Below, in pieces: positions 3,655 to 35,949 of a stretch of 38,035 nt of DNA. The notes below the pieces were generated by a model, which did no database searches, was not told the DNA's origin, and saw only the letters and a list, made by a program, of their open reading frames with translations. How positions within the stretch are numbered: the first letter of the stretch is position 1; every line of letters starts with the position of its first letter. The position numbers were made by a program, and so were the translations under genes. Source of the stretch: an uncultured Alphaproteobacteria bacterium (GTDB lineage: Bacteria; Pseudomonadota; Alphaproteobacteria; Bin95); NCBI GenBank assembly GCA_937891825.1, contig CALAHN010000121.1, forward strand, positions 1 to 38,035, given 5' to 3'.

Positions 3655-3925
3655 CCGGCCCGTCGGCGGACCTGCTTCCAGGACAAAGAAACCTCGGCGG
3701 CGCTGCGCTCACAAGATCGCGACTGCAGCGCGACGCGCTTCGCTGAACGCGGTCAGTTCATAAAAAATTGGTACTAATCCAAATTATTACTTTGTAACAA
3801 TTTCCGGTAACGAGTTAGTCGCTATTTGTGGAAGAATTAATGGAGGATTTTCGTATTATTCGCCTATCGATTTCGATGGTTTGTCCATTGAAATTATTTC
3901 CTTAATCATCGATAGGGGCGGGGTA
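3655..3925. other. AT-rich intergenic region upstream of the RTX peroxidase
   Basis: 271 nt without a credible gene. The first about 100 nt are as GC-rich as the surroundings; from about 3758 to 3900 the sequence turns markedly AT-rich (runs such as AAAAAATT and AATTATTACTTTG), in sharp contrast with the window. This probably holds the promoter of the peroxidase gene. TTGTAA followed 17 nt later by TTAGTC is a weak -35/-10 candidate. A 21-codon ORF starting at the ATG in AATTAATGGAGG (3840) has no support. Confidence 0.5.
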
Positions 3926-4894
3926 ATGACGATTCTTGGGAAACTGCTGGGCGCCAAAGACGATTTCAACCTTTTTGATCTGATCTTCAAGACGGTTGGC
4001 GCGGACGACAAAGGCAAGCCGAAGCCGGACGACCACGATGCGGACCACGGCGGCGATGGCGACGGGCAACATCAGGCTGGCGACAACCTGATCGTCAATG
4101 GCGATTTTGAGAATTACCCTGCCCTGCAGAATGGCGACTGGGGTTACCTGAATTCGGTCAGCGGATGGCACGCGACGAAGGGCGAAGTTGAAATTCAATC
4201 CGGCGACTTCGGCACGGGCAATTCGGCCGGGAACGCCGTCGCCGAGCTGGATTCGTCGCGCAATTCGACGATCCAGCAAGTCGTTACGGTCGAGGAAGCA
4301 GGCGTCTATGAGTTCTCGCTCGACTACGCCATGCGGGATAACGATCCAGGCACAAACGGATTCGCCGTCTATATCAACGGCGTCGAGCATGCGTCGGTTT
4401 ATCCTGACGAGCCGGGTTTCAAGACCCTGGCGTTCGAGGTGGCCCTTGAAGCAGGTCCGGCCGCCATCGCGCTGACGGCGCTTGGAAAATCCGACAGCTA
4501 CGGCACGGTGATCGACAATGTCTCCCTGCGTCTGGCGGACGAGGCCAAGGACGACGACCCCGAATTCGCCGCGACGCATGCGGACGCTATCGTGCATCGC
4601 TATGACGGCCAAGACGACGGCGCGTATCACGCGGCGCGGCTGGAAGACGGCGAGCAGTTCGCAAGCGCGGTTCTGCTGCACGGCGCCGACGGCGCCGTCG
4701 TCCTGACCGACGGCGAGATTTCCCATAACGGCGAGATGGTGGCGAAATTCTCCGACGCGAGCGCCGGCCTGCACTTCATCGGCCGCGCCGAGAACGGCGA
4801 TTTTCTCTATGCGTCCCAGGGGCTGACGCAGAGCGATGAGCCGGCCTTCGAATTGAAGGATTCGGACATCGATTTCCTGTTGAAGCAGTCCTAG
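3926..4894 (+). CDS. N-terminal part of RTX haem peroxidase, ends at in-frame TAG
   Basis: 322 aa up to an amber codon at 4892-4894. The downstream peroxidase frame is the same frame, and the sequence translates without a break on both sides of the TAG, so this is most likely the N-terminal fifth of one 1645-residue protein. Layout: residues 1-30 hydrophobic/amphipathic (MTILGKLLG), 31-54 an Asp/His/Gly-rich linker, about 55-205 a beta-sandwich module of the DUF642/carbohydrate-binding look (LIVNGDFEN, SGWH, AELDSS, TIQQVV, AVYINGV, TVIDNVSL), and about 206-322 an unrecognised domain leading into the peroxidase. I chose ATG 3926, preceded by AGGGGCGGGG; the frame can also be opened at TTG 3881 without a ribosome site. 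TAG could derive from CAG by one transition. No classical signal peptide is seen, as expected for type I secretion. Confidence 0.7.
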   Translation: MTILGKLLGAKDDFNLFDLIFKTVGADDKGKPKPDDHDADHGGDGDGQHQAGDNLIVNGDFENYPALQNGDWGYLNSVSGWHATKGEVEIQSGDFGTGNSAGNAVAELDSSRNSTIQQVVTVEEAGVYEFSLDYAMRDNDPGTNGFAVYINGVEHASVYPDEPGFKTLAFEVALEAGPAAIALTALGKSDSYGTVIDNVSLRLADEAKDDDPEFAATHADAIVHRYDGQDDGAYHAARLEDGEQFASAVLLHGADGAVVLTDGEISHNGEMVAKFSDASAGLHFIGRAENGDFLYASQGLTQSDEPAFELKDSDIDFLLKQS

Positions 4895-4951
4895 CTCGGC
4901 GTCGTCGATCCGAGCCAGCTTGCGGACATCACCGACCCAAGCGGCATTCGG

Positions 4952-7900
4952 TTGCTCGACGGCTTCGGCAACAACGTCAACAACCCGACCTGGGGCAAGG
5001 CCGACGAACCGTTCCTGCGCTGGGGCGGAGTGAACTATGAGGATGGCGTCGGCGAGCCGCGGCAGGGGCCGAACCCCCGCGATATCTCCAATGCCGTGCA
5101 CAATCAGAACACGCAGACCGTGGACGCCACCGGGCCAGGCGTTTCCGCGACCGACAAGGACATTCCGAACAATTTTCTCGGCAACGAGCTGGTTTCGGCA
5201 TTCGGTCAGTATTTCGACCACGGGCTGGATTTCGTGCCGAAAGGGCAGGAGGTCATGCCGGTTGGGAACGATAGCTTCCCGCTGTCGATCAATCGCGGGC
5301 TTGTCAATGAAGGCACGGGCGAGAACGGCGCGCCACGCCAGCACAACAACCTGACGTCGCCATTTGCTGATCAGAACCAGGCATATGGCTCCAATGAAGC
5401 AATCCTTGAGTTCCTGTTGGAACGCAACGATGCCGGCGAACTGACCGCTCGCCTCCTCACCGGGTATACGGCCGACGGCGTGTCGCGTCCGGCCACGCTC
5501 GGCGAGTTGAAGGCGAATTGGCAGAAGGGCGTCGACGCCGGCGTGGTTCCGCAGTTCGAGGACGGTTGGATTTCCGACTTCCGCGGCTCTGGCGATCCGC
5601 TGTTGCTCGACATCAATCCCGGCGTCGCGCTCGACGACCATCTGGTCGCCGGCGATGGACGGATCAACGAGAACATCGGCCTCACGTCGGTGCATACCAT
5701 CTTTGCGAACAATCATAACTTCTGGGTCGATGCGATCGCCAAGAAGCTGGAGGAACTGGCGGACGCGGGAACGCCGCGCAATTACGACCAGGAAGATCTG
5801 TTCAACATGGCGAAGATCGTCAATGAGGGCGAGTATCAACGGATCGTCTTCGACGAATTCGTCGAGCTTCTGGTCGGTTCTGACGTGCATGCGTTCCGGG
5901 ATTACAATCCTCAGATCGACGCCTCTATTTCGCACGAATTCGCTGCGGCGGCGTTCCGGCTTGGCCACTCGATGCTGAACAACTACATCACTGTGCAGAA
6001 CGAAGATGGCTCGACGTCGGAATTCCCCTTGTTCAATGCGTTCCTGAACCCAGGCGCGTTCCAGAACCTGGGCGCGTCCTCCATCATTGGCGGCAGCCTG
6101 ACGAGCTTGCATCAGGAAATCGATCCGTCGATCGTTTCCGATCTTCGCAACAATCTGCTGGGGCAACCGCTCGATCTGGCCTCGTTCAATATCGGCCGCG
6201 GCCGCGACCTCGGCATCGAAACCCTGAATGGGATGCGCGAAGCTGTCGGCCTCTCCAAGTACAGCGACTGGGAGAGCTTCGCCGGCAATATGCGCAACCC
6301 GTCCGACGTCGAGAAGTTCAAGCAGGTCTACGACTCCGTCGACGATGTCGATCTCTGGAGCGGCGGGCTTGCGGAAAAGGCGAGCTCGGCCAACGGTCTT
6401 GGCGTCAACACGGTCCTTGGCGAAACCTTCACCTGGGTTTTCTCGATCCAGATGATCGCCATTCAGGACGGCGACCGGTTCTACTACAAGCATCGGCTGT
6501 TCGAGACCAATCTGCGGCAGGAAATCCAGAATCAGGACTTCGCCGACGTAATCGAACGGACGCTCGATCTCGATCATCTCGGCGCGGAAGTTCTGACCCG
6601 ATATGACGAACGGATCGACCTGCGGGAGAGCCTCGGCGCGGAAACCTTGAAGTTCGAGGGCGACGGCGACCGGGAAATCATCATCGGCCGCAACTTCGGC
6701 GAAACGATCGACGGCGGCGCCGGCGACGATACGATCTTCGGCGAGGCGGGCAGCGATCTGTTGCTCGGCAAGGATGGCGACGACGCACTGCATGGCGGCG
6801 ACGGCGACGATATCCTCATCGGCCACGACGGCGACGACCGGTTCGACGGCGGCAAAGGCAATGACCGTGCGGAAGGCGGCCTTGGCGACGACGACATGGC
6901 CGGCAACGCCGGCGACGATATCCTGAATGCCGGCGAAGGCGACGACGAAGCATTCGGCGGCGACGGCGACGACCGGATCGATGGCGGCTCTGGCTGGGAC
7001 AATCTTTGGGGCGGCTATGGCGACGACATCGTCAAGGGCGGTTCCGGGCGCGATCAGCTCAGCGGCGGCCATGGCAATGACCGGCTCGACGGCGGTTCCG
7101 GCGATGACCGGATCATCGGCAGCGAAGGCGACGACGATCTGACCGGCGGCGAAGGCTACGATGTCTTTCAGTTCCTTCCCGGCTCCGGCTCCGACATCAT
7201 TCGCGATTTCAGCGTGAGCGAAGATCGGATCGACTTGCATCGCTATGTCTGGGAATACGGTTCGGACGCGGTCAACGCCGACAGCTTGCGGGATAGCCTT
7301 GTCGATGCCGCTGAAGGCGCGCGGCTGACCTTGCCGGGCGCGGCTTCGATCCTCTTCGAAGGCGTGTCCGCGGACAGCTTGCGCAGCGCCGGCGACGGCA
7401 TCTTCATTCTTGAGGCTGTCGTCGATCAACGCTCGCACCTGCAGCGGCAGGAACTTGCGCGGGTGATGGAAATCGACGTGCCTTCGATCGTTTCCGTCAG
7501 CGGCAAGGACGGCAGACTGAACGACAATCGCTATGACGAAACGATCGACGAACTGGTGACGACCCATCAGGGCTTTGACGATGGCAGCTTCGATACAGAT
7601 CTCGCGCTCGACAAGAAAAGCGACTTCGGTCAGGCGGTCTATGCTGACGGCAAACCGGACAAAGAAGGTCTGTTCATCCAGGGCGTCGACAGCGACGACC
7701 GGCTGGCGCTCAGGCTGCATAGCCAGGAGAACCCCGGCGTCGATGGTCCCGAAGCCCCGGTTTCGACCTACTTCGCCGTAGCAGCGCGCGGCGACGGCGC
7801 CGACGCGCTTGCGATGCGCCACCTCCTGGCGACGCCCAGAGCCTTTGATGACGGCGCGTCGGACCTCAATCCCAACGGGGTGACGGTTGCAATCGTTCGC

Positions 7901-8863
7901 GACGCATCGGTCTTCACCGGCACGAAGTACGACGACGTCTTCGTCGGCTCCCAGCGGGCGGATGTCTTCTATGCCGGCAAGGGCGACGACGAGGCGGGCG
8001 GCGGCGACGGCGACGACATGCTGGTCGGCGGCGACGGCGACGATCGGCTCGACGGCGGCGCTGGCGACGATGGCGTCTACGGCGGCGACGGCGCGGACGT
8101 GCTGTACGGCGGCGCTGGCGATGACGACATCGCAGGCGACGAAGGCGACGATGCGCTCGATCGCGGCGAGGGCGACGACGGCGTCTTTGGCGGGGCCGGC
8201 GATGACATCCTCAAGGGCGGCGACGGCGACGACCTGATGGCTGGCGACGCTGGCAAGGATGTCATATCCGGCGATGAGGGCGACGATGCGCTGTTCGGCG
8301 GCGATCATGACGATCGGCTGTACGGCGGCGCCGGCGATGACGAACTCGTCGGCGAACGCGGGGACGACCGTCTTGAAGGCGGCGAGGGCAAGGACGCGCT
8401 GTATGGCGGGGCTGACGATGACAGTCTCAACGGCGGCGCTGGCGACGATGTTCTCGCCGGGGAAAGCGGCAAGGATCGTCTTGCAGGCGGCGAAGGCGCG
8501 GACACGCTCTATGGCGACGGCGACAACGACGTGCTTCTGGGCGAAGCCGGCGACGACAGGCTCTATGCCGGCGACGGCAATGACGTGCTCGATGGCGGCG
8601 CCGGCGACGATCTGATGAATGGCGGCGCAGGCAAGGACGTGTTCCAGTTCACGTTTGGCGGCGGCCACGATGTCATCAGCGACTTTGAGCAAGGCATCGA
8701 CATCATTCAACTGTTGGGCTTCGCCGGCGACTTCGACGATCTCTCCATCCACGCGGTCGGCCACGATCTCCGCGTCGATCTTTCCGGCGGGGCGGAATCG
8801 TTGACGCTTTCGGGCTACGCCTATGAGACCCTTGGCGAGAAGGACTTTGCATTCGGATACTAA
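4952..8863 (+). CDS. Animal-type haem peroxidase with two RTX blocks (C-terminal part of the interrupted gene)
   Basis: 1303 codons in the same frame as the preceding ORF. 4952 is only a TTG inside conserved peroxidase sequence (LDGFGNNVNNPTWG) with no ribosome site, so it is not a convincing start; the fragment probably begins right after the TAG. The peroxidase-cyclooxygenase superfamily haem site is complete: distal His in QYFDHGLDF (5219-5221), Arg and Glu of GDGRINEN (Arg 5660-5662), proximal His in FRLGHSM (5966-5968), and the Ca-loop-like SFPLSINRG. Then come RTX block 1 (about 16-18 nonapeptides), a DVFQF beta cap, an unrecognised stretch (about 7430-7910), RTX block 2 (about 25-27 nonapeptides) and a C-terminal cap DVFQFTFGGGHDVISDF with a hydrophobic end, typical of type I secretion signals. 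Predicted to be a secreted, Ca-folded enzyme oxidising halides or organics with H2O2. No HlyB/HlyD genes are nearby. Confidence 0.82.
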   Translation: MLDGFGNNVNNPTWGKADEPFLRWGGVNYEDGVGEPRQGPNPRDISNAVHNQNTQTVDATGPGVSATDKDIPNNFLGNELVSAFGQYFDHGLDFVPKGQEVMPVGNDSFPLSINRGLVNEGTGENGAPRQHNNLTSPFADQNQAYGSNEAILEFLLERNDAGELTARLLTGYTADGVSRPATLGELKANWQKGVDAGVVPQFEDGWISDFRGSGDPLLLDINPGVALDDHLVAGDGRINENIGLTSVHTIFANNHNFWVDAIAKKLEELADAGTPRNYDQEDLFNMAKIVNEGEYQRIVFDEFVELLVGSDVHAFRDYNPQIDASISHEFAAAAFRLGHSMLNNYITVQNEDGSTSEFPLFNAFLNPGAFQNLGASSIIGGSLTSLHQEIDPSIVSDLRNNLLGQPLDLASFNIGRGRDLGIETLNGMREAVGLSKYSDWESFAGNMRNPSDVEKFKQVYDSVDDVDLWSGGLAEKASSANGLGVNTVLGETFTWVFSIQMIAIQDGDRFYYKHRLFETNLRQEIQNQDFADVIERTLDLDHLGAEVLTRYDERIDLRESLGAETLKFEGDGDREIIIGRNFGETIDGGAGDDTIFGEAGSDLLLGKDGDDALHGGDGDDILIGHDGDDRFDGGKGNDRAEGGLGDDDMAGNAGDDILNAGEGDDEAFGGDGDDRIDGGSGWDNLWGGYGDDIVKGGSGRDQLSGGHGNDRLDGGSGDDRIIGSEGDDDLTGGEGYDVFQFLPGSGSDIIRDFSVSEDRIDLHRYVWEYGSDAVNADSLRDSLVDAAEGARLTLPGAASILFEGVSADSLRSAGDGIFILEAVVDQRSHLQRQELARVMEIDVPSIVSVSGKDGRLNDNRYDETIDELVTTHQGFDDGSFDTDLALDKKSDFGQAVYADGKPDKEGLFIQGVDSDDRLALRLHSQENPGVDGPEAPVSTYFAVAARGDGADALAMRHLLATPRAFDDGASDLNPNGVTVAIVRDASVFTGTKYDDVFVGSQRADVFYAGKGDDEAGGGDGDDMLVGGDGDDRLDGGAGDDGVYGGDGADVLYGGAGDDDIAGDEGDDALDRGEGDDGVFGGAGDDILKGGDGDDLMAGDAGKDVISGDEGDDALFGGDHDDRLYGGAGDDELVGERGDDRLEGGEGKDALYGGADDDSLNGGAGDDVLAGESGKDRLAGGEGADTLYGDGDNDVLLGEAGDDRLYAGDGNDVLDGGAGDDLMNGGAGKDVFQFTFGGGHDVISDFEQGIDIIQLLGFAGDFDDLSIHAVGHDLRVDLSGGAESLTLSGYAYETLGEKDFAFGY
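6686..7165 (+). repeat. RTX nonapeptide-coding repeat block 1
   Basis: About 16-18 tandem 27-nt units encoding GGxGxDxUx, e.g. [27 protein letters not shown]. They form a Ca2+-binding beta roll. The block ends at GYDVFQF, the start of a serralysin-like C-terminal cap. Confidence 0.9.
7918..8640 (+). repeat. RTX nonapeptide-coding repeat block 2
   Basis: About 25-27 tandem 27-nt units (GGDGDDMLV, GGAGDDGVY, GDEGDDALF and so on), denser and more regular than block 1, ending at GKDVFQF. A few units deviate (GGDHDDRLY, GGADDDSLN, GDGDNDVLL), losing one consensus Gly each. Confidence 0.9.
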
Positions 8864-8949: not shown

Positions 8950-8987
8950 CCGACCCTCAGGGCAATCGAGCTTGCCCTGAGGGTCGG
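8950..8987 (+). terminator. Hairpin terminator after the RTX peroxidase
   Basis: A perfect 16-bp stem, CCGACCCTCAGGGCAA (8950-8965) with TTGCCCTGAGGGTCGG (8972-8987), and a 6-nt loop TCGAGC, 87 nt after the peroxidase stop. It is followed by CCGTTTCG, so there is only a short T run. The strength of the stem makes a terminator the best reading. The rest of 8864-9088 shows nothing else. Confidence 0.78.
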
Positions 8988-9088: not shown

Positions 9089-9736
9089 ATGATGCAGAGA
9101 CCGCAACCGCTCGCTGACTTCCTCGCCTGTCTTGCGGCGTCGCTGAAGGCGGCGGCCGAGCCTGGCTCCCCGACGGCGCTTGCCGTCGATCGTGCGTTCG
9201 ATCGCCTGGCAACGCCGGGAACGGCGGCGACGCCGCGGCCGGACCGGGCGCCCGCGACCCAATGGCTGGCGCCGGCGTTTGCGGCGGCGAAACGCGGCGC
9301 TGTGGCGCCGGATCGCGGCGCTGCGGCGAACCTCGCCAGCGCATTTGCGGCCATCGCGCCCGGGCTTGCCTGGCAAGCCCGGACCGACCGTCGCTCCTCC
9401 GATCCAAACTTTCCGAACGCCCATGCGAACGCCGTGATCGTCGGCGCGGGCGGGCTGGAGGAGCGGAGCGATGTTCGCATCGGCGCGTCGCTGCTGGCGC
9501 CCCACACCGAATATCCCGATCACAGCCACCCGCCGGAGGAAGTCTATATCGCGCTTTCCAGCGGCATGTGGCGGCAGAACGACGGGCCGTGGCGGGCGCC
9601 GGGGCCGGGCGGGCTGATCTATAATCCGCCGAACATCGTCCATGCCATGCTGTCCGACGCGGCGCCTTTGCTCGCGATCTGGACGCTGCCCATGAGCGCG
9701 CCCTCAACTAGGCCCACGGGGCAGGCGCATGGCTGA
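9089..9736 (+). CDS. DMSP-lyase-family cupin (cupin-DLL)
   Basis: 215 aa. The C-terminal cupin carries the metal-site signature of the DMSP lyase/cupin-DLL family: H..YPDHSHPPEEVY (about residues 146-160), then SGMWRQNDGPW, GGLIYNPPNIVHAM and APLLAIW. In DddL/Q/W-type enzymes these His, Glu and Tyr residues bind Fe/Zn and cleave dimethylsulfoniopropionate to dimethyl sulfide and acrylate. The N-terminal about 130 residues are the helical Ala-rich half seen in this family. ATG 9089 and 9092 are both possible; GAGG at 9084 fits the second better. It overlaps the next gene by 8 nt, so the two are translationally coupled. Family assignment is good, but DMSP as substrate is not shown: no acrylate-handling gene (AcuI, AcuNK) lies beside it, and the neighbours suggest an amide- or lactam-containing substrate instead. 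Confidence 0.75.
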   Translation: MMQRPQPLADFLACLAASLKAAAEPGSPTALAVDRAFDRLATPGTAATPRPDRAPATQWLAPAFAAAKRGAVAPDRGAAANLASAFAAIAPGLAWQARTDRRSSDPNFPNAHANAVIVGAGGLEERSDVRIGASLLAPHTEYPDHSHPPEEVYIALSSGMWRQNDGPWRAPGPGGLIYNPPNIVHAMLSDAAPLLAIWTLPMSAPSTRPTGQAHG

Positions 9737-10625
9737 GGCGGGCGGCGGCCTGCGCGGTCATGGCCGCTATGCCTATGCGCCCCTGCCGGAGCGGCCGGAT
9801 TTTGACTGGCCGGGCGGACGGCGCCTCGCGGTTTATATCGGCCTGAACCTGGAGCATTTCGCCTTCGGGGAGGGGCTTGGCGGCGAACTGGCGCCGGGCG
9901 GGCCGCAGCCGGACGTGCTGAACTACGCCTGGCGCGATTATGGCAACCGGATCGGCGCATGGCGCTTGCTCGACCTCTTTAAGGCGCTCGACCTGCCGGT
10001 CGGCGTCCTGGCGAACACGGCGATGTACGATTACGCGCCGGAACTGATGGCCGCGTTCAGGGCCTATGGCGCGGAGATCATCGGGCACGGCCTGACCAAT
10101 GCCGAACGGCAGGGCGCCATGACCGAGGCGACGGAGCGGGAGCTCATCGAAAGTTGCGCGCAAAGGATCGCCGAGGAGGAAGGGCGCGCCCCCGGCGGTT
10201 GGCTCGGCCCCTGGATTTCCGAAAGCGCGGTCACGCCCGATCTCCTGCAGGAAGCCGGCTACCGCTATCTGCTGGACTGGGCGCACGACGATCAGCCGAC
10301 CTGGTTCCGCACCCGGAATGGCCAGCGCATTCTGTCCGTGCCCTATCCCCAGGAACTCAACGACATACCGGCGATCATGGCGCGGAAGACCGGCGCCGCC
10401 GAGTTCGCCGACATGATTATCGATAATTTCGACGAGATGCTGGCGCAGTCGGAAGCCCAGTCGCTGGTCATGGGCATCGCGCTGCATGGCTATATCGTCG
10501 GCCAGCCCTTCCGCCTGAAACACCTCCGCCGGGCGCTTCGCCATATCGTCGACGCCAGCAGCGACCGGGTCTGGCTGACGACGCCGGGCGCCATCGCCGC
10601 GCATTTCGCGACGCTGAACGAATAG
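9729..10625 (+). CDS. Polysaccharide deacetylase family protein (NodB/PuuE-like)
   Basis: 298 aa, no signal peptide, so cytoplasmic; this argues against cell-wall polysaccharide as substrate and for the PuuE-like branch, which hydrolyses cyclic ureides, formamides or related C-N bonds. Visible: WPGGRRLAVYIGLNLEHF at the first strand (the usual catalytic Asp position is altered to NLE), GVLANTAMYDYAPEL, EIIGHGLTNA (His of the metal site), GWLGPWISES, YLLDWAHDDQP and GIALHGYIVGQP (C-terminal His). The layout matches the COG0726 proteins found in small-molecule catabolic operons. It overlaps the DMSP-lyase-family cupin by 8 nt and lies 9 nt from the racemase-like gene. The substrate is unknown. 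Confidence 0.8.
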   Translation: MAEAGGGLRGHGRYAYAPLPERPDFDWPGGRRLAVYIGLNLEHFAFGEGLGGELAPGGPQPDVLNYAWRDYGNRIGAWRLLDLFKALDLPVGVLANTAMYDYAPELMAAFRAYGAEIIGHGLTNAERQGAMTEATERELIESCAQRIAEEEGRAPGGWLGPWISESAVTPDLLQEAGYRYLLDWAHDDQPTWFRTRNGQRILSVPYPQELNDIPAIMARKTGAAEFADMIIDNFDEMLAQSEAQSLVMGIALHGYIVGQPFRLKHLRRALRHIVDASSDRVWLTTPGAIAAHFATLNE

Positions 10626-25900: not shown

Positions 25901-26592
25901 ACCCCGAAATCACCCAATGGGACCGCTTCCTCGACAGCTTCTTCAAGCTCGAGGTCATGGCGAAGTACCTGCCGTCGATCATCGACGGGTTTCTTCTGAC
26001 CTGCCATCTGGCGCTGCTGGTGGTCGTGACGGGCCTGACGCTCGGCCTCTTCCTGGCGATCGTCCGGGCTTACGAGTTCTGGCTGACGAGCTGGCTGATC
26101 GCGGTGTTCGCCGACGTGATGCGCGCCCTGCCGCCGCTGGTCTTCATCCTGCTGCTGTATTTCGGGCTGCCGGCGGTCGGGATCAGCATGAGCGGGTATG
26201 TCGTCACCTGGCTGACGCTCGCCCTGGTGCTCGCAGCCTTCTCCGAGGAAATCTTTCGGGCCGGCATACTGGCGACGCCGAAAGGCCAGTGGGAGGCCGC
26301 ACGGTCGACCGGGCTGAATTTCGGGCGCACGCTGGCTTACGTGATCATGCCTCAGGCGATCCGGATGACAGTGCCGCCGCTGACGAACCGGACCATCGCC
26401 ATCACCAAGAACACCGCGCTCGGCACTGTCGTCGGCGTCGGGGAAATCTTGAACGCGGCGACGACGGCGCAATCTTTTTCCGGCAATGCCTCGCCATTGG
26501 TGATGGGAGCGCTGGGCTATCTCATCCTGTTCGTGCCGGTCGTGATTTTCGGGCGCTGGGTCGAAACCCGTTTCGCCTGGCAGAAGCAGTAG
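25897..26592 (+). CDS. Amino acid ABC transporter permease (HisM/GlnP type) 1
   Basis: 231 aa, five or so membrane segments. The EAA coupling loop is EEIFRAGILATPKGQWEAARSTG followed by VIMPQAIRMTVPPLTN, which contacts the ATPase. Typical polar amino acid permease of the His/Glu/Gln/Arg family. Start overlaps the ATPase stop by 4 nt. It is paired with a second, different permease 12 nt downstream, so the channel is a heterodimer. Confidence 0.95.
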
Positions 26593-34953: not shown

Positions 34954-35949
34954 ATGGCTAATCTTGTTGGAACTGGACTGGGCGACACGTTGATCGGCGG
35001 CGCGGGCGCCGATCAGATTGCGGGACTGGGCGGCGACGATCTGTTGCATGGCCTTGCCGGCGACGATCTCATCATAGGCGGCGACGGGAACGACACGATC
35101 TTCGGCGGCGACGGCGCGGATACGCTCCGCGGCGACGCGGGCGACGATTTCGTGGCCGGCGGCGCGGGCGACGATCACATTCTTGGCCTCGCGGGCGCCG
35201 ATCACCTGGAAGGCGAGGCTGGCGACGACCTGCTGCGCGGCGGCGACGGCGACGATTTCCTGGGCGGCGGCGACGGCGCCGATCGCCTTTTCGGCGACGC
35301 GGGCGCGGACAAGCTGGTCGGCGGCGCGGGGGCCGACATCCTCCGCGGCGGCGACGGCGACGACCTCCTGATCGGCGAGGACGGCGCCGATCTGCTCTTC
35401 GGCGACGGCGGCAACGACCGCCTGTTCGGCCATGACGGCAATGACGTCATTCAAGGCGGCGACGGCGACGATCAGTTGGACGGCAATGACGGCGACGACC
35501 GGATCGCGGGCGACGGCGGCGACGATTTCATTTCCGGCGACCAGGGCGCGGATCGGTTGAACGGCGCTGGCGGCAATGACGCCATCCACGGCGGCGACGG
35601 CGACGATTTCATCGTCGGCGGGGCCGGGAACGATACGCTGTTCGGCGACGAGGGCGCGGATATCTTGAACGGCGGCGCCGGCGCCGACAGCATCTATGGC
35701 GGCGGCGGTGCGGACCGGTTCCGCTTCGACGCGCCGACCAGCGAGGCGGATCGGGTCGAGGATTTCGCTATCGGCCTCGATCTGATCCAGGTCACGAACA
35801 GCGGCCTCGCGGACTTTGCCGCGATCCAGGCGCTGACGACGCAGGTCGGCTTCGACACGGTGATCGACTTCGGCGGCGGCGCTGTTCTGACGCTCGCCTT
35901 CGTCGATGCAAGCAGCTTGACCGGCGGCGACTTCAATATTCTGTCGTAA
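34954..35949 (+). CDS. RTX calcium-binding protein, almost wholly nonapeptide repeats
   Basis: 331 aa. After MANLV, 28 consecutive nonapeptides GGxGxDxUx run without interruption to about residue 257 (GTGLGDTLI through GGGGADRFR). A C-terminal cap follows: [25 protein letters not shown], then [25 protein letters not shown] and a hydrophobic end, the usual uncleaved type I secretion signal. No enzymatic domain is present, so it would fold with Ca2+ outside the cell into a long beta roll, acting as a structural, matrix or adhesive protein, or as a calcium-loaded scaffold (inference). AGGGAGATGG precedes the ATG. Neighbouring genes give no clue; secretion genes are absent. Confidence 0.9.
34969..35724 (+). 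repeat. 28 tandem 27-nt RTX units
   Basis: Uninterrupted at the protein level. At the DNA level, segments such as GGCGGCGACGGCGACGA recur many times and could undergo slippage or recombination with blocks 1 and 2 in the peroxidase gene. Confidence 0.9.

What the first reader, a model, noticed from the sequence alone, without database searches (positions are those of the whole stretch)
4880..4960. A single in-frame amber codon interrupts a giant RTX haem peroxidase
The ORF starting at 3926 and the frame containing the peroxidase are the same frame. The only stop between 3926 and 8863 is TAG at 4892-4894; sequence on both sides is coherent, and the first start available downstream is a TTG lying inside the conserved peroxidase N terminus without a ribosome site. 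So this is one 1645-residue gene broken once. Options: a sequencing error, a recent nonsense mutation (CAG to TAG is one transition), or amber readthrough by a suppressor tRNA. All haem-site residues and both repeat blocks beyond the stop are intact, which argues against old decay.
Basis: seen in the sequence. Interest (0 to 1): 0.72.

Follow-up and report, generated by a model that had tools for sequence, protein, structure and literature searches.

The report
Peroxidase gene cut by one stop
A large gene for a probably secreted, calcium-binding haem peroxidase, distantly related to bacterial manganese oxidases, is interrupted by a single stop codon; it is most likely a recent inactivating mutation or a base error, which is an ordinary event in bacteria.

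Summary
TAG 4892-4894 is the only in-frame stop between ATG 3926 and TAA 8861-8863. Codon usage matches on both sides, and the first start after it, TTG 4952, has no ribosome site. The TAG lies inside the peroxidase unit: an Asp kept in all 31 aligned sequences and a predicted helix precede it. Of 87 related loci, 83 have one open frame across this place; only a distant homologue, about 28% identical, is annotated as starting just after it. So it is one gene, related to MopA-type long peroxicins, interrupted once. Amber suppression is unlikely: RF1 is present, TAG ends 3 of 27 other window ORFs taken as genes, and none of 38 tRNAs reads UAG, though that list is incomplete. No second lesion in 1645 codons means the stop is young. 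Best reading: a recent nonsense mutation giving an inactive 322-residue stub. A base error is the main rival and cannot be excluded without reads. Programmed readthrough is possible but unsupported. Low interest.

The parts
3926..4891 (+). 5' part of the interrupted gene, 322 codons: N-terminal stretch, a domain at residues about 54-207 and a second domain (about 215-305) that precedes the second peroxidase unit in MopA-like homologues
   Evidence: (TIGR04362 31.6 bits and NF012221 45.6 bits, both far below their cut-offs of 120 and 700)
4844..4891 (+). first residues of the peroxidase unit, before the stop; predicted helix at residues 312-321, with the invariant Asp at codon 4865-4867
4892..4894 (+). 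in-frame TAG
   Evidence: reported as '1 TAG' inside the match by the genome searches
4952..4954 (+). first possible start codon (ATG/GTG/TTG) after the stop, TTG, without a Shine-Dalgarno site
4949..6574 (+). animal haem peroxidase domain (PF03098), haem-site residues present
6713..8647 (+). RTX region: two blocks of GGxGxD motifs (residues 930-1074 and 1359-1566, 24 motifs), separated by about 280 residues without that motif
8861..8863 (+). terminal stop TAA
8950..8987 (+). strong hairpin (16-pair stem) after the gene, a possible transcription end; no clear T run follows
   Evidence: the terminator scan did not list it

Best explanation
Window 3926-8863 is one gene for a calcium-binding haem peroxidase related to the MopA-type long peroxicins (relatedness shown; secretion and enzyme activity inferred). 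A recent nonsense mutation has put a TAG at codon 323. RF1 should end translation there and give a 322-residue stub with no haem domain, no calcium-binding repeats and no C-terminal export region, so the gene is inactive in this strain, apart from traces of full-length protein through ordinary mis-reading (inferred). The event is young: no other stop or frameshift is seen in the gene (shown).
For: Only one stop in 1645 codons and the frame is otherwise whole. If the gene had drifted freely since the stop arose, the absence of a second lesion bounds its divergence to under about 0.35-0.88% (model assumptions). Same codon usage on both sides. The TAG lies within the peroxidase unit: an Asp 9 codons before it is invariant in the window row and 30 homologues (31 of 31) and sits in a predicted helix in a stretch of mean pLDDT 90; Microvirga single-unit genes start MALQL..D..DLL or similar, upstream of the TAG position. 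83 of 87 related loci have one frame across the position; 73 of 87 also hold the upstream domain in that frame. RF1 is present and whole. TAG ends 3 of 27 other window ORFs taken as genes; at two of them the frame stays open through the next gene, which has its own ATG and a strong Shine-Dalgarno site, so TAG works there as a true boundary. No UAG-reading anticodon among 38 tRNAs. [quoted passage not shown]
Against: No reads and no second strain: none of the other four genomes of the genus has the N-terminal part at E 1e-5, so a base error cannot be told from a mutation. The unit is the most divergent of the 30 compared: it departs at 9 of 84 columns that are invariant in the 29 others, against 0-3 for any other row treated the same way, and it has the longest branch. 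This may be relaxed constraint older than the stop, or only the lack of close relatives. Distant short peroxidases start near the TAG position. The tRNA list is incomplete.
Confidence: 0.61

Rival explanations
1. The TAG is a base error in the draft assembly and the real gene is intact.
For: Draft of 163 contigs; one isolated substitution-type lesion in an otherwise clean 4.9-kb gene. Five usual isoacceptor tRNAs were not found (my reading), which suggests that the assembly, or the tRNA search, is not complete.
Against: No frameshift or other stop in this gene. The own-genome matches to the peroxidase family (2 of 2) and to the release-factor family (3 of 3) show no internal stop, a very small sample. 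Single-base errors are rare in well-covered short-read assemblies (recalled, not tested).
Confidence: 0.22
2. The TAG is read through at a useful rate, so that a short product and a small amount of full-length peroxidase are both made.
For: Everything after the stop is intact. PMC7918605 (abstract and part of Results) argues that many bacterial in-frame stops are not pseudogenes. PMC11126739 (passages) measured TAG reporters in E. coli: mean 0.49% and 0.80% of control fluorescence at 18 and 25 degrees, 0.03% at 37.
Against: RF1 present; no UAG-reading tRNA found; no pyrrolysyl-tRNA synthetase over cut-off (32.9 bits, cut-off 178.15; weak hits in 13 of 14 control genomes too). No unusual structure after the stop (z -0.95, 38 of 200 shuffles fold as well). 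No in-frame stop seen at this place in the related loci. The same passages of PMC11126739 report no readthrough detected in the proteome for genes ending in TAG.
Confidence: 0.09
3. It is a gene fission: a 322-residue protein and a separate peroxidase starting at TTG 4952 are both made.
For: MopA-like proteins are divided between two genes in some relatives (L070, L075, L109, L129), the second gene starting at the peroxidase unit in L070 and L075. The PF03098 match begins one codon before TTG 4952, so the catalytic core would be almost whole. Distant short peroxidases start near here: L063 is annotated as starting about 10 codons after the TAG position, and the second peroxidase of this genome starts at about that position.
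Against: TTG 4952 has no Shine-Dalgarno site (-1.7 kcal/mol) and 57 bases lie between it and the stop. The first ATG, 5255, has a good site but lies after the distal His. The closer homologues that start at the unit do so upstream of the TAG position and keep the N-terminal helix sequence.
Confidence: 0.06
4. An old, decaying pseudogene.
For: The most divergent unit in the set.
Against: A single lesion in 1645 codons, unchanged codon bias, haem site and repeats intact.
Confidence: 0.02

Closest known systems
MopA-type Mn(II)-oxidising haem peroxidases / long bacterial peroxicins (Erythrobacter SD-21, Aurantimonas manganoxydans SI85-9A1; PMC6247904, abstract and passages read; PMC4420034, passages read)
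   Same: Animal-type haem peroxidase unit together with hemolysin-type (RTX) calcium-binding repeats, known from Alphaproteobacteria. The scan found a 3332-codon frame with two units in A. manganoxydans SI85-9A1 (L139), presumably MopA by strain and layout; accession not checked.
   Different: One unit only, 39-44% identical to the 29 homologues aligned; no G-x-D-G-x5-D-D (PERCAL) motif after the stop; no match to the N-terminal 210 residues was followed up in these homologues; no exporter genes beside it among the window proteins scanned; interrupted by TAG. Mn oxidation untested.
Single-unit RTX haem peroxidases of Microvirga (L067, L068, L070, L075)
   Same: In the group next to the window unit if midpoint rooting is right; one unit per gene; no gene boundary at the TAG position.
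   Different: They begin at the peroxidase unit with a start codon upstream of the TAG position; the window gene has about 306 codons before the unit.
[quoted passage not shown]
   Same: Single in-frame stop in an otherwise intact, conserved frame; that paper's worked example is also a TAG.
   Different: That study relies on stops shared by two or more species and on dN/dS; here only one genome examined has the gene, so neither test is possible.

Membership tests
Animal haem peroxidase (PF03098; peroxidase-cyclooxygenase superfamily) | Profile match over the catalytic domain | tested here: met
   296.6 bits, profile 2-522 of 530; PDB relatives lactoperoxidase, peroxinectin A and myeloperoxidase by profile; Foldseek E 8.8e-24 to 6erc_A (model mean pLDDT 69)
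Animal haem peroxidase (PF03098; peroxidase-cyclooxygenase superfamily) | Distal Asp-His, catalytic R-x-x-E, proximal His (R-x-x-E from PMC4420034 passages; the rest recalled) | tested here: met
   Asp431-His432, Arg579-Ile-Asn-Glu582, His681; D133, H134, R281, E284 and H383 of alignment A3 are invariant
MopA-type long peroxicin | Peroxidase unit plus hemolysin-type calcium-binding repeats in one large frame | tested here: met
   Both lie in the frame after the stop, 1322 codons; with the part before it only if the TAG is read through
MopA-type long peroxicin | PERCAL calcium-binding motif (named for MopA-type proteins in PMC6247904 passages) | tested here: not met
   No match to G-x-D-G-x(5)-D-D after the stop
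MopA-type long peroxicin | Mn(II) oxidation | not testable with these tools
   -
RTX protein exported by a type I system | RTX nonapeptide repeats towards the C-terminus | tested here: met
   PF00353 228.3 bits, 14 stretches
RTX protein exported by a type I system | Type I exporter available | tested here: met
   PrtD-type exporter on contig C55, 706.9 bits, over cut-off; none recognised among the window proteins scanned; in 5 of the 6 annotated plasmid regions an exporter gene follows the peroxidase gene (not L063)
Amber-recoded or suppressed gene | UAG-decoding tRNA in the genome | tested here: inconclusive
   None among 38 tRNAs nor among 3 weak candidates, but five usual isoacceptors were also not found
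Amber-recoded or suppressed gene | RF1 lost or TAG not used as a stop | tested here: not met
   prfA 481.7 bits, over cut-off; TAG ends 3 of 27 other window ORFs taken as genes
Amber-recoded or suppressed gene | Stop conserved in homologues | tested here: not met
   83 of 87 loci open across the position by profile alignment; in all 87 the nearest upstream stop, or the end of the record, is at least 18 codons before the best match
Recent pseudogene / nonsense allele | Single disabling lesion, intact elsewhere, intact homologues | tested here: met
Recent pseudogene / nonsense allele | Lesion confirmed in reads | not testable with these tools
   no reads held

The most novel reading that the evidence does not exclude
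The TAG is kept as a throttle. Low-level, growth- or temperature-dependent readthrough yields a little full-length secreted peroxidase and much of a 322-residue N-terminal product with its own role, so that a costly, oxidant-making 1645-codon exoenzyme is set by translation termination rather than by transcription.
Probability: 0.06. Interest if true: 0.6.

Novelty: new member of a known kind. Interest (0 to 1): 0.2.

Why it matters
Mostly for annotation: the gene should be recorded as one interrupted peroxidase gene, not as two unrelated genes, and the strain should not be assumed to make the enzyme. If the stop were read through, it would be a regulated amber codon in a secreted bacterial oxidase. 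The comparison also shows that MopA-like proteins occur as one or as two genes, which bears on how the peroxidase units are used.

Tried and rejected
Amber suppression: RF1 is present; 38 tRNAs were read and none has a CUA anticodon. A pattern search for a CUA loop plus T arm gave 4 matches, fewer than its reversed control (13 and 18): two are Glu tRNAs (anticodons TTC and CTC) and two hold no tRNA by ARAGORN. Three weak Rfam candidates hold no tRNA by ARAGORN. Limit: Ile-GAU, Ala-UGC, Ser-GGA, Leu-UAA and Arg-UCU were not found either (my reading; that they should be there is recalled), so absence is not proof. Pyrrolysine: no synthetase over cut-off.

Readthrough signals: the RNA after the stop is not unusually folded; no repeats of 10 bases or more around it.

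Close relatives carrying the same codon: none found. The other four genomes of the genus have no match to the N-terminal part at E 1e-5. P0002 gave matches at E 1e-40 in 3 of 14 genomes of the family, full length only in the own one. Searches of 385 genomes of the class at E 1e-80 and 1e-100 found only the own genome (strict limits that would miss homologues of about 40% identity). Scans with P0002 confirmed no relative in genome contigs or viral contigs; a profile did find relatives.

A toxin reading was considered because of the RTX repeats. The NCBIfam toxin models hit with their best stretches in the repeats or in the N-terminal domain, far below their cut-offs (266 against 1000; 170 against 2000; 45.6 against 700), so the gene is treated as an enzyme. 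The paper search 'heme peroxidase, RTX, calcium-binding, animal' returned one irrelevant paper. One value printed ('rest 6601-8860') was out of frame and is replaced. The structure model is modest (mean pLDDT 69), and only its helix before the stop and its overall fold are used.

The unit-plus-repeats membership row was changed from inconclusive to met, because both lie in the frame after the stop.

Full report
Observation. In the frame that begins at ATG 3926 the only stop codons up to 8863 are TAG 4892-4894 and the terminal TAA 8861-8863. The pieces encode 322 and 1322 residues. Codon adaptation to the other window genes is 0.678 before the stop, 0.675 in the peroxidase part and 0.693 in the repeat part, while the other two frames score 0.22-0.48. 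A frame of 1322 codons after the stop with strong Pfam matches (296.6 bits to the animal haem peroxidase, 228.3 bits to RTX repeats) is not chance. ATG 3926 has a good Shine-Dalgarno site. The first possible start after the stop, TTG 4952, has none: -1.7 kcal/mol, weaker than the median of 1000 random positions, -3.9.

One gene or two. I compared 87 related loci: the best 80 of 131 relatives from a scan of species genomes with a profile, and 7 regions chosen from 32 plasmid records. In 83 of 87 a single open frame spans the TAG position with at least 8 model positions before and 10 after it; in 73 of 87 the same frame also holds the upstream domain. The four misses are L068, L087, L062 and L063. 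By eye L068 and L087 also span it, since their genes start MAMQLRDSD and MALILSQQD; L062 starts about 20 residues before the TAG position. L063, about 28% identical, is the exception: its annotated start falls about 10 codons after the TAG position, although its frame is open for 73 codons before the match. The second peroxidase of this genome, also distant, starts at about the same place. Across all 87, the nearest in-frame stop, or the end of the record, lies at least 18 codons before the best match (for L062 the best match starts far downstream, so this says little). The TAG sits in a short insertion of the window protein (its column is a gap in the five homologues), just after the first helix of the unit. 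The Asp at codon 4865-4867 is invariant in the window row and 30 homologues, and the model puts it in a helix in a stretch of mean pLDDT 90. Microvirga single-unit genes begin with MALQL..D..DLL or similar, which corresponds to the window sequence before the TAG. So the stop is inside a conserved unit, not at the gene boundary used by the closer homologues.

In L070 and L075 (Microvirga) the first unit lies on the opposite strand from the second; in L109 (Methylobacterium oxalidis) and L129 (Microvirga massiliensis) two frames follow each other. This makes a fission reading worth considering, but these breaks fall upstream of the window's TAG: the second gene starts at the unit in L070 and L075 and further upstream in L109 and L129.

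How it most likely works. If complete, the protein would be a probably secreted peroxidase. The haem-site residues (Asp431-His432, Arg579-x-x-Glu582, His681) are present (roles partly from PMC4420034 passages, partly recalled). Its profile finds lactoperoxidase, peroxinectin A and myeloperoxidase, and the model matches 6erc_A with E 8.8e-24. The repeats and the genome's PrtD-type exporter, which lies on another contig, suggest type I secretion, inferred only; in 5 of the 6 annotated plasmid regions an exporter gene follows the peroxidase gene. With the TAG obeyed, the product is a 322-residue stub without any of these parts. RF1 is present. TAG ends 3 of 27 other window ORFs taken as genes. 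At two of those the frame stays open through the next gene, 252 and 227 codons, and that gene has its own ATG and a strong Shine-Dalgarno site (-9.3 and -10.2 kcal/mol). That is how a real TAG boundary looks here, and the peroxidase TAG lacks it. None of 38 tRNAs reads UAG, with the limit that five usual isoacceptors were not found either.

Age. If the gene had been free to drift since the stop appeared, other stops and frameshifts would have accumulated. Finding none in 4935 bases bounds the divergence since then to about 0.35-0.88%, depending on assumed mutation bias and indel rate. This fits a recent nonsense mutation, a base error, or a stop that does not abolish function. Against a gene in perfect health before the stop: the unit departs from 9 of 84 columns invariant in the 29 homologues, against 0-3 for any other row, and has the longest branch. 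With no close relatives this cannot be interpreted further.

Ranking. Recent nonsense mutation 0.61, base error 0.22, useful readthrough 0.09, fission with a start at 4952 0.06, old decay 0.02. These are judgements. The decisive data are reads and a second strain; none of the other four genomes of the genus carries the gene's N-terminal part.

What is known. The nearest characterised relatives are MopA-type Mn(II) oxidases, classed as long peroxicins (PMC6247904, abstract and passages; PMC4420034, passages; PMC3396595, abstract). The window protein shares the unit and the repeats but has one unit, no PERCAL motif after the stop and 39-44% identity to the homologues aligned, so its substrate is open. 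In-frame stops in otherwise intact bacterial genes are described as widespread and short-lived (PMC7918605, abstract and first part of the Results section). The finding is therefore real but ordinary, unless readthrough is shown.

Noticed in passing
window 3902-8764 (-): An antisense frame of 1620 codons runs opposite almost the whole gene. It is explained by the complete absence of TTA, CTA and TCA codons in the 1645-codon sense frame, so it is no evidence of a second gene.
   Followed up: yes
L070, L075, L109, L129: The two-unit MopA-like protein is divided between two genes in Microvirga and Methylobacterium oxalidis, in two cases on opposite strands.
   Followed up: partly
L146, frame from 1599, 3916 codons: A Hyphomicrobiales MAG has three peroxidase units in one frame.
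   Followed up: no
G000:C46:860-2305 (-), L001: The same genome has a second animal haem peroxidase gene with RTX repeats, frame 765 codons, 432 bits to PF03098, without an internal stop; it is distant from the window unit (about 29% identity).
   Followed up: partly
window 10623-10625 and 26590-26592: Two other TAG stops lie at the Shine-Dalgarno site of the next gene (ATAGGGGG, GTAGGAGG), and the next gene happens to be in the same frame.
   Followed up: yes
window 9089-9736 (+): A DMSP-lyase-like cupin gene (PF16867, 154.5 bits) follows the peroxidase gene.
   Followed up: no
window 34954-35949 (+): A 331-residue protein rich in RTX repeats (PF00353, 12 stretches).
   Followed up: no
window 8950-8987: A very stable hairpin (16-pair stem) lies between the peroxidase gene and the DMSP-lyase-like gene.
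   Followed up: partly
L076 (Brevundimonas bullata) and L077 (Alphaproteobacteria MAG): The long protein is divided between two frames: in L076 inside the first peroxidase unit (model positions up to 552 and from 554), in L077 after it. This looks like a frameshift in those drafts, or more interrupted genes.
   Followed up: no
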